Assembly: GCF_000964005.1 (NCBI RefSeq)
Contig: NZ_JXYP01000005.1
Coordinates: forward strand, 1 to 64,000
Direction of reading: 5' to 3'
Source: Williamsia herbipolensis
GTDB lineage: Bacteria > Actinomycetota > Actinomycetes > Mycobacteriales > Mycobacteriaceae
Length of the DNA stretch: 64,000 nt
Shown here: positions 25,035 through 28,016 of the stretch, in pieces
How the letters are laid out: each line of letters opens with the position of its first letter
Numbering within the stretch: position 1 is the stretch's first letter
Notes under the pieces: model-generated
What the model was told of the DNA's origin: nothing
The model's database searches: none
The model's input: the letters and a program-made list of their open reading frames with translations, nothing else
Made by a program: the position numbers and the translations under genes

Positions 25035-25068
25035 ATACCCCGGGGGGTGTGTATACCCATGGGGGTAT
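25035..25068 (+). promoter_or_regulatory. Two tandem CsoR/CstR-type operators before the MmpL gene
   Basis: ATACCCCGGGGGGTGT (25035-25050) and ATACCCATGGGGGTAT (25053-25068) stand side by side, 22 bases before the MmpL start. The second, with its flanks, shares GTGTATACC and ATGGGGGTATCA with the csoR operator at 381-403, differing only by one spacer base. A third similar site precedes the repressor gene at 27,696. They also lie within 65 bases of the ligD start on the other strand. Confidence 0.7.
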
Positions 25069-25089
25069 CAACCACCGAGAGGACATCCC

Positions 25090-27249
25090 ATGCGCCCCGC
25101 AACCCGCTCGTCTCCCGACCTCCGTCGGCCCGACACCACGCCGCGTCCCGGACTGCTCGGGCGAGTCGGTGGCTGGGGTACCGATCACCGCCGGCTGGTC
25201 TTCGGGCTGTGGCTCGCCGCGATCGTCGTCCTCGGCGCCTTCGCTCCCTCGGTGTTCTCGTCACTCGCCGGCGCCGGGTGGCAGGCGAACGGCTCGGAAT
25301 CGGTGGCGGTGCGCGAGCTCGCGCAGGAGCACTTCGGCGGGAACGCCTCCTCGGCGGTCCAGGTCGTCGTCCACTCGGACTCCGCGGCCGTGACCGACCC
25401 GTCGATGCAGGCGGTGTTCACCCAGATCGGTCGCGAGCTCGGATCGGACCCGCGCTTCGGGGAGATCGTCGCGCCCCAACCGGGGATGACGATCAGCCGC
25501 GACGGTCACACCGGGATCCTCATCGCCGGCGCGAACGCGTCGACCGACGAGATGGTGAAGGCCGTCGACGACCACAAGTCACAGCTGACGGACCTGTCCC
25601 GCAACGGTATCGAGGTCTATCCCACTGGTGCGTCGGCACTGTGGGCGGACTTCAACAAGGCCAACCACGACGCGATGATCAAAGCCGAGCTGTTCTCGTG
25701 GCCCGTCACACTCGCGATCATGGTGCTCGCGTTCGGGTCCCTGGTCGCAGCCGGTCTGCCGTTGCTGCTGACCGTCGCGGGCCTCGTCGCGTCCGCGGGT
25801 GGACTGGTGCTGCTCAACCAGGTGACACCGATCTCGGTGTGGGCCATGAACTTCGCGATGATGTTCGCCCTGGCGCTCGGCATCGACTACGCGCTGTTCA
25901 TCGTCTCGCGGTTCCGTGACGCGCTGAAGCAGCGCGGCGATCGGCGTCAGGCCGTCGTCGACACCATGGACACCGCGGGCAAGGCCGTGGTCCTGTCGGG
26001 CCTCACCGTCCTCGTCAGCCTCTCGGCCGTCCTGCTCGTCCCGGCGCCGTCGGTGCGGACGATGGCGGTCGGGATCATGCTCGCGGTGGTCTTCGTCCTT
26101 ATCGCGACCCTGACCCTGCTGCCCACCGTGCTCGGTGCCCTCGGTCCGAGGGTCAACGCGGTGTCGTTGCCCTACGCGAAGAAGCAGGAGCACCGGTCGC
26201 CGGTGTTCCACCGCTGGGGGTCGCTGCTGCACGAGCACCCGTGGCCGTTCGCGGTCGTCTCCCTGGGGATCCTGGTGCTGCTGGCTCTGCCGGTGTTCGG
26301 GCTGAAGGTCGCGATGCCCTCGATCTCGGTGGTGCCGGAGGATGCCCCGGTGCGGCAGGGGTACGCGCTGGTGCAGCAGCAGTTCGGTCCGGGTGCTCCT
26401 GGCGCGCTGCAGATCATCTCCCCGGCCGCCGAGGCGCAGGCCGCAGCGACCACCGCATCGTCGAGCCCGGGTATCGCGATGGTCACCCCGCCGCAGCCCG
26501 CGCGCGACGGTTCGGGATATGCGCTCATGCAGGCGATCCCGACCGTGGACCCGTCGAACGCGCAGATGGGGTCGATCCTGGACACACTGCGCAACCGTCT
26601 CCCGGCCGACGCTCTCGTCGGCGGGGCACCCGCGGAGAACCTCGATCTGCAGACCGCACTGAACGACTACCTGCCCGTCATCGTCGGCGTCATCCTGACC
26701 ATGGGCTTCCTGCTGTTGCTCGTCGCATTGCAGGCGCCGCTCATCGCCCTGATGGGAACCGCGGTCAGCCTGCTGTCGACCGGCGCGGCGTTCGGTGTCG
26801 CGAAGCTGGTCTTCCAGGACGGTCACGGGGCGTCGCTGCTCGGGTTCACGCCGCAGGGATTCCTCGACGGATGGGGTCCGGTGTTCTTCTTCGCGATGAT
26901 CTTCGCCATCGCGATGGACTACACGGTGTTCCTGCTGGCCACGGCCAAGGAACACTACGAGAAGACCGGTGACCCGCACACCGCGCAGATCGACGGCATG
27001 GCCCACTCGGGTCGGGTGATCTTCGCGGCGGCGGCGGTGATGGTGGCGGTGTTCTTCAGCTTCGCCCTCGCCGATCCGCTCCCGCCGAAGGAGATGGGCA
27101 TCATCCTGGGCGTGGCGGTACTGCTCGACGCCGTGTTCATCCGGCTGATGTTGCTGCCGGTGCTGCTCCGGATCGCCGGCCACGCCGGCTGGTGGTCACC
27201 CGCGTGGCTCCGGCGCGTCCTGCCGTCGATCAGCTTCGCCCACAACTGA
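25090..27249 (+). CDS. MmpL/RND family exporter
   Basis: A 719-residue RND-type membrane protein of the MmpL subfamily, with two repeats of one helix, an outside loop, and five helices. The key proton-relay motif is GIDYALFIVSRFRD in the first half and AMDYTVFLLATAKE in the second. It lacks the long C-terminal cytoplasmic tail of MmpL3. GAGAGGA lies 6 bases before the ATG. It is first in an operon with a DUF302 gene and a CsoR-like repressor, behind two operators, so it is probably induced by metal, sulfide or persulfide. The exported molecule is unknown. Confidence 0.9.
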   Translation: MRPATRSSPDLRRPDTTPRPGLLGRVGGWGTDHRRLVFGLWLAAIVVLGAFAPSVFSSLAGAGWQANGSESVAVRELAQEHFGGNASSAVQVVVHSDSAAVTDPSMQAVFTQIGRELGSDPRFGEIVAPQPGMTISRDGHTGILIAGANASTDEMVKAVDDHKSQLTDLSRNGIEVYPTGASALWADFNKANHDAMIKAELFSWPVTLAIMVLAFGSLVAAGLPLLLTVAGLVASAGGLVLLNQVTPISVWAMNFAMMFALALGIDYALFIVSRFRDALKQRGDRRQAVVDTMDTAGKAVVLSGLTVLVSLSAVLLVPAPSVRTMAVGIMLAVVFVLIATLTLLPTVLGALGPRVNAVSLPYAKKQEHRSPVFHRWGSLLHEHPWPFAVVSLGILVLLALPVFGLKVAMPSISVVPEDAPVRQGYALVQQQFGPGAPGALQIISPAAEAQAAATTASSSPGIAMVTPPQPARDGSGYALMQAIPTVDPSNAQMGSILDTLRNRLPADALVGGAPAENLDLQTALNDYLPVIVGVILTMGFLLLLVALQAPLIALMGTAVSLLSTGAAFGVAKLVFQDGHGASLLGFTPQGFLDGWGPVFFFAMIFAIAMDYTVFLLATAKEHYEKTGDPHTAQIDGMAHSGRVIFAAAAVMVAVFFSFALADPLPPKEMGIILGVAVLLDAVFIRLMLLPVLLRIAGHAGWWSPAWLRRVLPSISFAHN

Positions 27250-27285
27250 CCTCACCGTTCTCGAACCCAACGACGGAGACACCCC

Positions 27286-27696
27286 ATGGAACTGGGACTG
27301 AGCACCACCCTCACCGACACCGACCTCGCCACCGCGAAGCAGAAGGTGACCGACGCCCTCGCCGAGCAGGGCTTCGGTGTCCTCACCGAGATCGACGTGC
27401 AGGCGACGATGAAGAAGAAACTCGACGAGGACATGGAGACGTTCACCATCCTCGGCGCCTGCAATCCGCACATCGCCCACCGCGCTCTCGGTGTCCGACC
27501 ACAGATCGGAATGCTGTTGCCGTGCAACGTCGTCATCCGTGCCGACACCGCCGACGACACCGGTCGCACCCTGATCGTCGAGGCGATGAACCCCGACCTC
27601 ATGGGATCGGTGACGGGGGAACAGGCGCTGACGCCCATCGCGGCGGAGGCGGGTGAGCTGCTGCGCAGGGCGATCGCGACGATCGCCGCCCCCTGA
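27286..27696 (+). CDS. DUF302 domain protein
   Basis: A 136-residue protein with one DUF302 domain (TT1751-like fold). Typical parts are the start [20 protein letters not shown], the [18 protein letters not shown] strand-helix, and YxxLGACNP-like [14 protein letters not shown]. It has two cysteines (GACNP and LPCNV). These proteins often accompany sulfur- or metal-handling genes. It lies 36 bases after the exporter gene. Function unknown. Confidence 0.88.
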
Positions 27697-27711
27697 TACC
27701 CCCGGGGCTAT
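27696..27711 (+). promoter_or_regulatory. CsoR/CstR-type operator before the repressor gene
   Basis: ATACCCCCGGGGCTAT is an almost perfect inverted repeat that begins at the last base of the DUF302 gene and ends 35 bases before the repressor ATG. It is the best single palindrome of the family in this window and could give the repressor gene its own controlled promoter. Confidence 0.65.
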
Positions 27712-27746
27712 GCTGGGTGATCACCATCCGCGGCGAGGAGAAACTC

Positions 27747-28016
27747 ATGATCGGCGACGACGACGCAATCGCGCAGGTGCTCAACCGGTTGCGGCGCGCA
27801 CAGGGCCAACTCGGCGGGGTGATCGCGATGATCGAGGCCGGGCGTGACTGCAAGGACGTGGTGACCCAGCTCGCCGCGGTGTCGAAGGCCCTCGATCGGG
27901 CCGGCTTCAAGATCGTGGCCACCGGACTCCGTGAGTGCATGACCGACAACGCCGAGGGAGTGCGGGAACCGATGACCGAGGCCGAACTCGAGAAACTGTT
28001 CCTCGCGCTGGCGTAG
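27747..28016 (+). CDS. CsoR-family repressor lacking the copper-binding His (CstR-like)
   Basis: An 89-residue CsoR/RcnR-family helical repressor. Cys35 (GRDCKD) and Cys64 (LRECMT) keep the spacing of the two CsoR cysteines (29 residues), but the His four residues before the second Cys is Gly60. CstR proteins, which sense persulfide or sulfite through two cysteines, also lack this His. So copper sensing is unlikely and sulfur sensing more so; that is inference. GAGGAG lies 6 bases before the ATG. It ends the exporter-DUF302 operon. Confidence 0.88.

What the first reader, a model, noticed from the sequence alone, without database searches (positions are those of the whole stretch)
25035..28016. 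MmpL exporter and DUF302 protein under a CsoR paralogue that lacks the copper His ligand
The exporter, DUF302 protein and repressor form one operon with three palindromic sites. The repressor keeps Cys35 and Cys64 but has Gly60 where CsoR has His. This is the pattern of CstR, a persulfide/sulfite sensor. An RND exporter of the MmpL class controlled by such a sensor would be an unusual link between sulfur stress and lipid or small-molecule export.
Basis: partly seen in the sequence, partly recalled or inferred. Interest (0 to 1): 0.68.

Follow-up and report, generated by a model that had tools for sequence, protein, structure and literature searches.

The report
Sulfur-stress operon with MmpL-type pump
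An actinobacterium carries a small gene switch that looks built to sense reactive sulfur and, instead of the usual sulfur-oxidising enzyme, turns on a membrane pump of the kind normally known for exporting lipids.

Summary
At 25090-28016 an MmpL transporter, a DUF302 protein and a CsoR-family repressor lie head to tail. Three sites matching ATACC-N6-GGTAT (0-1 mismatch) precede mmpL (two) and csoR (one). The repressor has Cys35 and Cys64, with Gly60 where copper CsoRs have His; all three residues are constant in 101 of 101 close relatives. Related repressors sit beside persulfide dioxygenase (PDO), rhodanese, TauE and YgaP-like genes. Two annotated Rhodococcus plasmids carry MMPL, YgaP-like, DUF302, TauE, regulator and MBL-fold hydrolase in one block. 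The operator matches that of Streptomyces coelicolor ScCsoR, a published sulfane-sulfur sensor. The CstR-like reading is therefore well supported by comparison, not by experiment. New here: this MmpL clade travels with sulfur genes across actinobacteria; 62 of 95 MmpL-bearing family genomes, the window's included, lack a detectable type III-like PDO; the pump is nearly always cysteine-free; DUF302 keeps two constant cysteines. Best explanation: sulfane sulfur modifies the repressor and derepresses a pump-plus-thiol-protein branch of reactive-sulfur defence. The pump's substrate is unknown: a sulfur species, a sulfur-damaged lipid or an envelope lipid.

The parts
25035..25050 (+). operator-like palindrome 1 (ATACCCCGGGGGGTGT, one mismatch to ATACC-N6-GGTAT)
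25053..25068 (+). operator-like palindrome 2 (ATACCCATGGGGGTAT, exact), 21 bp before the mmpL ATG
   Evidence: same consensus as the ScCsoR sites in PMC7533328
25090..27249 (+). MmpL-type RND transporter, 719 aa, D266-Y267 and D610-Y611 constant in 28 of 28 sequences, no cysteine
27286..27696 (+). DUF302 protein (TT1751-like), 136 aa, Cys59 and Cys80 constant in 54 of 54 sequences, window included
27696..27711 (+). operator-like palindrome 3 (ATACCCCCGGGGCTAT, one mismatch), before csoR
27747..28016 (+). CsoR/DUF156-family repressor of the CstR/ScCsoR type, 89 aa, Cys35, Gly60, Cys64

Best explanation
This is a reactive-sulfur defence operon. The repressor binds the paired operators before mmpL and the single one before csoR. 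Persulfide or polysulfide modifies Cys35 (with Cys64 needed) and releases it. The cell then makes a proton-driven MmpL pump and a two-cysteine DUF302 protein. I think the DUF302 protein takes up or relays sulfane sulfur and the pump expels a hydrophobic sulfur-bearing product (a polysulfane, or a lipid or thiol carrying sulfane sulfur). This would be an export branch that replaces or accompanies oxidation by persulfide dioxygenase. Shown here: gene order, residues, sites, conservation and linkage to sulfur genes in relatives. Inferred from ScCsoR and CstR: the sensing chemistry. Inferred only: the roles of DUF302 and the pump's substrate. The confidence given is for the reactive-sulfur operon reading; I put about 0.35-0.4 on a sulfur-bearing substrate.
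For: C35, G60 and C64 in 101 of 101 sequences. Operator of the same form as the ScCsoR site, where polysulfide modifies Cys37 and abolishes binding and both cysteines are needed (PMC7533328, passages). 142 exact sites in 80 named loci (1.02 Mb) against 0 for the reversed pattern; 106 lie near cluster genes: PDO/rhodanese group 41, CsoR 36, MmpL 19, others 10. In 201 family genomes, 95 of 95 with this MmpL and 78 of 78 with a type III-like PDO also have a repressor match (169 of 201 overall); 93 of 122 listed MmpL matches have a listed repressor within 2.5 kb. In a class-wide draw selected by MmpL alone, 25 of 29 other loci have a match to CsoR, DUF302, PDO/rhodanese, TauE or the YgaP-like gene within 1.5 kb. 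Annotated plasmid clusters. MmpL with zero Cys in 27 of 28 and 28 of 29, while 7 of 9 other own-genome MmpL genes have at least one in the aligned span.
Against: No experiment. The operator consensus is shared with copper control: the third exact site in this genome lies by a multicopper-oxidase gene, and the genome has two copper-type CsoR paralogues. A profile containing one copper paralogue ranked a copper CsoR first in PDB. In this genome no PDO (best match 29% identity) and no SQR-like match (without a positive control) were found, and its one TauE is unlinked, so the sulfur context comes from relatives. On one tree, repressors labelled MmpL-only (30) or PDO-only (20) need only 2 changes, which could mean a functional split; with all 81 rows labelled it is 11 and 15. 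Gly60 is not universal further out: of 12 repressors in the class-wide loci, 10 have Gly, one Ser, one Asn, none His. Only 12 of those 29 loci have an exact operator. Four of the 25 linked class-wide loci rest on a single short match (L196, L205, L211, L212). Cys-free MmpL is weak evidence: 2 of 9 other own MmpL genes are also Cys-free in the aligned span.
Confidence: 0.8

Rival explanations
1. Same sulfur sensor, but the pump exports an ordinary envelope lipid: sulfur stress damages the cell envelope and the operon helps to rebuild or protect it. No sulfur leaves the cell by this route.
For: Closest solved folds are the lipid or siderophore exporters MmpL3, MmpL5 and MmpL4. The MmpL clade is frequent in the window's family (95 of 201 genomes), whose members typically have mycolic acids (recalled).
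Against: The clade also occurs in Streptomycetaceae (L119, beside the repressor) and Pseudonocardiaceae (L086, beside the repressor and TauE), and in other class-wide loci beside rhodanese-like and TauE matches (L202, L206, L207); mycolates are not expected in those two families (recalled). DUF302 with two constant cysteines often travels with it.
Confidence: 0.3
2. The repressor is a copper or other metal sensor and the operon is part of metal resistance.
For: The family founder CsoR senses copper; the operator form is shared with a site beside a multicopper oxidase; the second copy of the operon lies on a contig with an arsenic-type SBF/LMWPc gene pair and metal P-type ATPases; plasmid copies lie near cadmium and heavy-metal transporters.
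Against: The His ligand is replaced by Gly in 101 of 101 and by Gly, Ser or Asn in 12 of 12 class-wide repressors, while the solved copper CsoRs and InrS shown, and the in-window paralogue, have His. No copper ATPase or chaperone lies in the three-gene operon. Neighbours in relatives include sulfur genes.
Confidence: 0.07
3. The repressor is a general thiol-oxidation or electrophile sensor (peroxide, hypochlorite, aldehydes), sulfur being only one of several inducers.
For: A two-Cys CsoR-like protein of Thermus loses DNA binding with H2O2 or Cu(II) under non-reducing conditions and did not respond to NaHS (PMC10318464, passages). The second copy is preceded by an Rv2466c-like mycothiol-dependent oxidoreductase.
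Against: Frequent company of PDO, TauE, rhodanese and YgaP-like genes. FrmR-type formaldehyde sensing needs Pro2 (PMC5016687, passages); none of the 98 sequences that cover position 2 has Pro there (3 of 101 do not cover it).
Confidence: 0.15
4. The pump is a sulfite or thiosulfate exporter standing in for TauE.
For: 62 of 95 MmpL genomes lack a type III-like PDO match, and the window operon has no TauE.
Against: MmpL and TauE occur in the same cluster on two plasmids and in 6 of 27 named MmpL loci. MmpL pumps are not known for inorganic anions (recalled). Without PDO less sulfite should form.
Confidence: 0.08

Closest known systems
ScCsoR gene circuit of Streptomyces coelicolor (SCO0618-0621; PMC7533328, passages)
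   Same: Repressor type, two cysteines 29 apart, ATACC-N6-GGTAT operators with two before the pdo gene, autoregulation
   Different: There the outputs are persulfide dioxygenase, TauE and rhodanese; here they are MmpL and DUF302, and no type III-like PDO was found in this genome
CstR of Staphylococcus aureus and relatives (PMC9774590, passages; 7mq1/7mq2)
   Same: CsoR-family dithiol sensor without the copper His; represses sulfur-detoxification genes
   Different: Gly here instead of Asn at the His position of 7mq1; no MmpL in the described cst operon (recalled)
SUL module of Antarctic Arthrobacter plasmids (PMC6305408, passages)
   Same: CsoR-family regulator, sulfur dioxygenase, rhodaneses, TauE and DUF302 in one cluster
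   Different: Its transporter is described as a major facilitator; the MMPL gene in that paper is in a separate module
MmpL3, MmpL4, MmpL5 exporters
   Same: Fold (Foldseek TMq about 0.73-0.80) and paired Asp-Tyr motifs (motif role in MmpL3 recalled)
   Different: 16-25% identity in the fold search; far below the NCBIfam MmpL3 cut-off (200 vs 1400 bits); no MmpS gene in the operon; only 719 aa; regulator and neighbours differ
Copper CsoR / RicR
   Same: Family PF02583 and similar GC-rich palindromes
   Different: His ligand missing

Membership tests
CsoR/DUF156 repressors (PF02583) | Profile match over the family's cut-off | tested here: met
   83.2 bits vs 22.8
CstR/ScCsoR sulfane-sulfur sensors | Two conserved cysteines 29 residues apart | tested here: met
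   Cys35/Cys64 in 101 of 101; 37/66 in ScCsoR, 31/60 in CstR
CstR/ScCsoR sulfane-sulfur sensors | No His at the copper-ligand position | tested here: met
   Gly60 in 101 of 101; Gly 10, Ser 1, Asn 1 of 12 class-wide; Asn in 7mq1
CstR/ScCsoR sulfane-sulfur sensors | ATACC-N6-GGTAT operators at target promoters | tested here: met
   not exclusive, as one site beside a copper gene has it too
CstR/ScCsoR sulfane-sulfur sensors | Control of PDO, rhodanese or sulfite exporter genes | tested here: inconclusive
   Linkage met in many relatives; not met in this genome
CstR/ScCsoR sulfane-sulfur sensors | Loss of DNA binding on persulfidation | not testable with these tools
   needs purified protein
Copper CsoR | Cys-His-Cys metal site | tested here: not met
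   Gly60; in-window paralogue at 412-717 has His
FrmR formaldehyde sensors | Pro2 near Cys35 | tested here: not met
   Residue 2 is V 66, I 17, T 15 of 101; 3 not covered
MmpL RND transporters (PF03176) | Profile match, two Asp-Tyr pairs, RND fold | tested here: met
MmpL3 trehalose monomycolate exporter | NCBIfam equivalog cut-off | tested here: not met
   200.2 vs 1400 bits
Sulfur-compound exporters | Transport of a sulfur species | not testable with these tools
   needs transport assay

The most novel reading that the evidence does not exclude
This MmpL clade is a dedicated exporter for reactive sulfur (polysulfanes, S8, or lipids or thiols loaded with sulfane sulfur), cysteine-free so that its cargo cannot modify it, with DUF302 as the cytoplasmic sulfur carrier. 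It would be an efflux-based branch of sulfane-sulfur defence, to my knowledge undescribed, used in many actinobacteria that lack the usual persulfide dioxygenase.
Probability: 0.35. Interest if true: 0.85.

Novelty: new variant of a known kind. Interest (0 to 1): 0.6.

Why it matters
The sulfane-sulfur defence described in the papers I saw is enzymatic: oxidise to sulfite and let it out. A pump of the MmpL class under the same kind of sensor, in genomes without the oxidising enzyme, suggests a second strategy. It gives a concrete, testable role to two orphan families (this MmpL clade and DUF302) and a clue to an MmpL substrate that may not be a classical lipid. The sensor reading is conservative; the pump is the open question.

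Tried and rejected
Copper sensor: rejected as the likely reading because the His ligand is missing in 101 of 101. Formaldehyde sensor: no Pro2. MmpL3 orthologue: far below the equivalog cut-off. Replacement of TauE by MmpL: both occur in one cluster. PDO elsewhere in the genome under the same operator: none found; best match 29% identity, and none of the three exact sites precedes one. MmpL-PDO mutual exclusion across genomes: no significant association (33 of 95 MmpL genomes have PDO, Fisher p=0.31). DUF302 function from structure: only uncharacterised solved relatives. Promoter and terminator scans added nothing. A tree with PDB fragments is dominated by long branches and was not used for placement.

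Searches for print on the combination (open-access library only): no listing or opened passage described an MmpL under a CstR-type sensor. Of the hits I opened passages of PMC6305408, PMC7781554 (its 'DUF302' is DUF3027), PMC12175524, PMC7533328, PMC9774590 and PMC9918477; the other hits I saw only as listings. PMC10318464 and PMC5016687 (found) were also seen as passages.

Limits: gene calls came from a crude caller that missed genes, so presence counts rest on tblastn and the genome search. The PDO cut-off (250 bits) misses weaker ones, for example L064 at 224 bits. In one search the 'PDO' group is a blast cluster that can include rhodanese-only genes. MmpL translations start at the tblastn hit, so some N-terminal residues were not counted for cysteine. 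In one search only the 150 repressor matches that I took from the tool's cut listing were used, so linkage is a lower bound, 122 MmpL matches include a few fragments, and genomes are related, so Fisher values overstate independence; whether the more distant repressor matches are all of the sulfur type was not checked. My first Cys count of the other own MmpL genes included doubtful ORF starts; one search recounted within aligned spans (7 of 9 with Cys, not 8).
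Full report
What is there. On the + strand, 25090-27249 encodes a 719-aa MmpL transporter, 27286-27696 a 136-aa DUF302 protein and 27747-28016 an 89-aa CsoR-family repressor. Gaps are 36 and 50 bp. Upstream, ligD runs the other way from an ATG at 25006, leaving 83 bp that hold two palindromes. A third palindrome overlaps the DUF302 stop and precedes csoR. With the pattern ATACC-N6-GGTAT and up to one mismatch these are the only three sites in 64 kb, against 0.18 expected.

Where it comes from. Its MmpL is 93% identical. So the window is most likely Williamsia (inference).

The repressor. Cys35, Gly60 and Cys64 are each present in 101 of 101 sequences: the window plus 100 loci, 80 named and 20 unnamed, with some genomes in both sets. 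In 12 more repressors found in the class-wide loci both cysteines are kept and the middle residue is Gly in 10, Ser in one and Asn in one. The solved copper CsoRs and InrS shown in the alignments have His four residues before the second cysteine, while 7mq1 has Asn; a review names its sister entry 7MQ2 as CstR (PMC9774590, passages). The same window holds a copper-type paralogue at 412-717 with the His. Single-sequence search ranks 7mq1 first for our protein (E=3.4e-11), with InrS at 4.9e-10 and the best copper CsoR at 1.8e-8; a profile that included the copper paralogue ranked a copper CsoR first. The genome has four family members: two of the copper type and two of the type described here.

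The published model. In Streptomyces coelicolor, ScCsoR represses a persulfide dioxygenase, TauE and rhodanese circuit; polysulfide modifies Cys37, both cysteines are needed for release, and the site is ATACC-N6-GGTAT, two of them in the pdo promoter (PMC7533328, passages). Our operator, cysteine spacing and paired sites match. Two Streptomyces repressors among the relatives are 80-84% identical to ours. I did not fetch SCO0620 itself.

Operator distribution. In the whole genome the pattern has three exact sites. Two precede mmpL operons: this one, and a second copy on contig C45 with an Rv2466c-like oxidoreductase, MmpL (88%), DUF302 (76%) and repressor (79%). The third lies between a multicopper-oxidase gene (start about 590 bp away) and a divergent DUF6153 gene (about 150 bp), so the pattern does not by itself separate sulfur from copper control. 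In 80 named loci (1.02 Mb) there are 142 exact sites, 106 within 350 bp before (or up to 120 bp into) a cluster gene; 70 of 80 loci have at least one; the reversed pattern gives 0. These loci were chosen by the repressor, so enrichment near it is expected; the informative part is that PDO-group and MmpL genes share the site.

Neighbours. By tblastn, among the 80 named loci, 54 have DUF302, 32 TauE, 27 MmpL, 24 type III-like PDO and 13 the YgaP-like gene; 4 have MmpL and PDO together; 8 have none of the queried genes (many loci end at contig ends). Of the 57 loci longer than 13 kb, 18 have MmpL, 18 PDO, 42 DUF302, 22 TauE and 5 none of these, the YgaP-like or the SQR-like gene. Pfam confirms sample proteins as metallo-beta-lactamase plus rhodanese, TauE, and YgaP-like. 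On plasmid pBD2 of Rhodococcus erythropolis the annotated order is MMPL, YgaP-like, DUF302, TauE, metal-sensitive regulator, MBL-fold hydrolase; a second Rhodococcus plasmid has the same order. MmpL relatives occur on 44 of 72,556 plasmid records.

Survey. In 201 genomes of the family, a repressor match was found in 169 (E<=1e-12), the MmpL in 95 (E<=1e-150) and type III-like PDO in 78 (E<=1e-40). All 95 and all 78 also have the repressor match; of the 169, 33 have MmpL and PDO, 62 MmpL without PDO, 45 PDO without MmpL, 29 neither. Of 122 listed MmpL matches, 93 have a listed repressor within 2.5 kb and 19 a PDO within 4 kb; 29 have no listed repressor near. None of the 8 genomes of the window's genus has the PDO; 6 of the 8 have the MmpL. 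MmpL and PDO show no significant association or avoidance (p=0.31). In a class-wide draw of 296 genomes, 28 have the MmpL; of 29 loci other than the window, 25 have at least one sulfur-cluster match within 1.5 kb, 8 of 8 in the family and 17 of 21 outside it; four of the 25 rest on one short match, and two of the four misses are cut by contig ends. This draw was selected by MmpL, not by the repressor, and is the least biased support. Only 12 of the 29 have an exact operator.

Trees. With 81 repressors, the window's nearest by path are two Rhodococcus repressors beside PDO and TauE, then Nocardia ones beside MmpL; presence of MmpL needs 11 changes and of PDO 15, on a poorly resolved tree. On a larger tree with only exclusive labels counted (30 MmpL-only, 20 PDO-only), just 2 changes are needed, so subtypes cannot be excluded.

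The pump. The AlphaFold model (mean pLDDT 73.5) matches MmpL3 first, then MmpL5 and MmpL4. Both Asp-Tyr pairs are constant. It has no cysteine in 27 of 28 sequences and 28 of 29 class-wide loci (the own second copy is in both sets and other overlaps are possible). Of nine other MmpL genes of the same genome, seven have at least one cysteine in the aligned span and two have none.

DUF302. Cys59 and Cys80 are constant in 54 of 54. Solved relatives are uncharacterised.

How it most likely works. Inferred from ScCsoR and CstR: persulfide or polysulfide modifies Cys35, the repressor leaves the paired sites, and the operon is expressed. Inferred from company and residues: DUF302 handles sulfane sulfur by its two cysteines, and the pump exports a product. 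I put about 0.85 on reactive sulfur as the signal and 0.35-0.4 on a sulfur-bearing substrate.

Literature. Seven searches of the open-access library on combinations of MmpL, DUF302, CsoR, CstR, sulfane sulfur, persulfide dioxygenase and related words gave no description of this link in what I saw. An Arthrobacter plasmid paper lists CsoR, sulfur dioxygenase, rhodaneses, TauE and DUF302 together, with MMPL in another module (PMC6305408, passages). A CstR-like repressor of Bacillus licheniformis, YrkD, is also a sulfane-sulfur sensor over a larger sulfur cluster (PMC9918477, passages). Subscription papers were not searched.

Noticed in passing
window 412-717 (+): A second CsoR-family gene in the same window, with the Cys-His-Cys pattern of copper sensors; a natural control for the finding.
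   Followed up: yes
L153 16125-19899 (genome contig C45): Second copy of the operon, headed by an Rv2466c-like oxidoreductase gene and an exact operator; on the same contig an IS110-type transposase, an SBF-family and an LMWPc-family gene (read as arsenic resistance) and metal P-type ATPases.
   Followed up: partly
window 25007-25089: The two operators lie in the 83 bp between divergent ligD (DNA ligase D) and mmpL, so the repressor might also affect ligD.
   Followed up: no
window 28688-31165 (-): One long ORF with a cytochrome P450 domain, a sub-threshold NAD-binding reductase match and a 2Fe-2S domain, the layout of a self-sufficient P450.
   Followed up: partly
L154 5725-5740 (genome C45:25725-25740): An exact ATACC-N6-GGTAT site between a multicopper-oxidase gene and a DUF6153 gene, showing that copper and sulfur repressors in one genome may share an operator form.
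   Followed up: partly
window 19691-21073 (+): DUF2252 protein of unknown function with a weak, sub-threshold kinase-like (APH) match.
   Followed up: no
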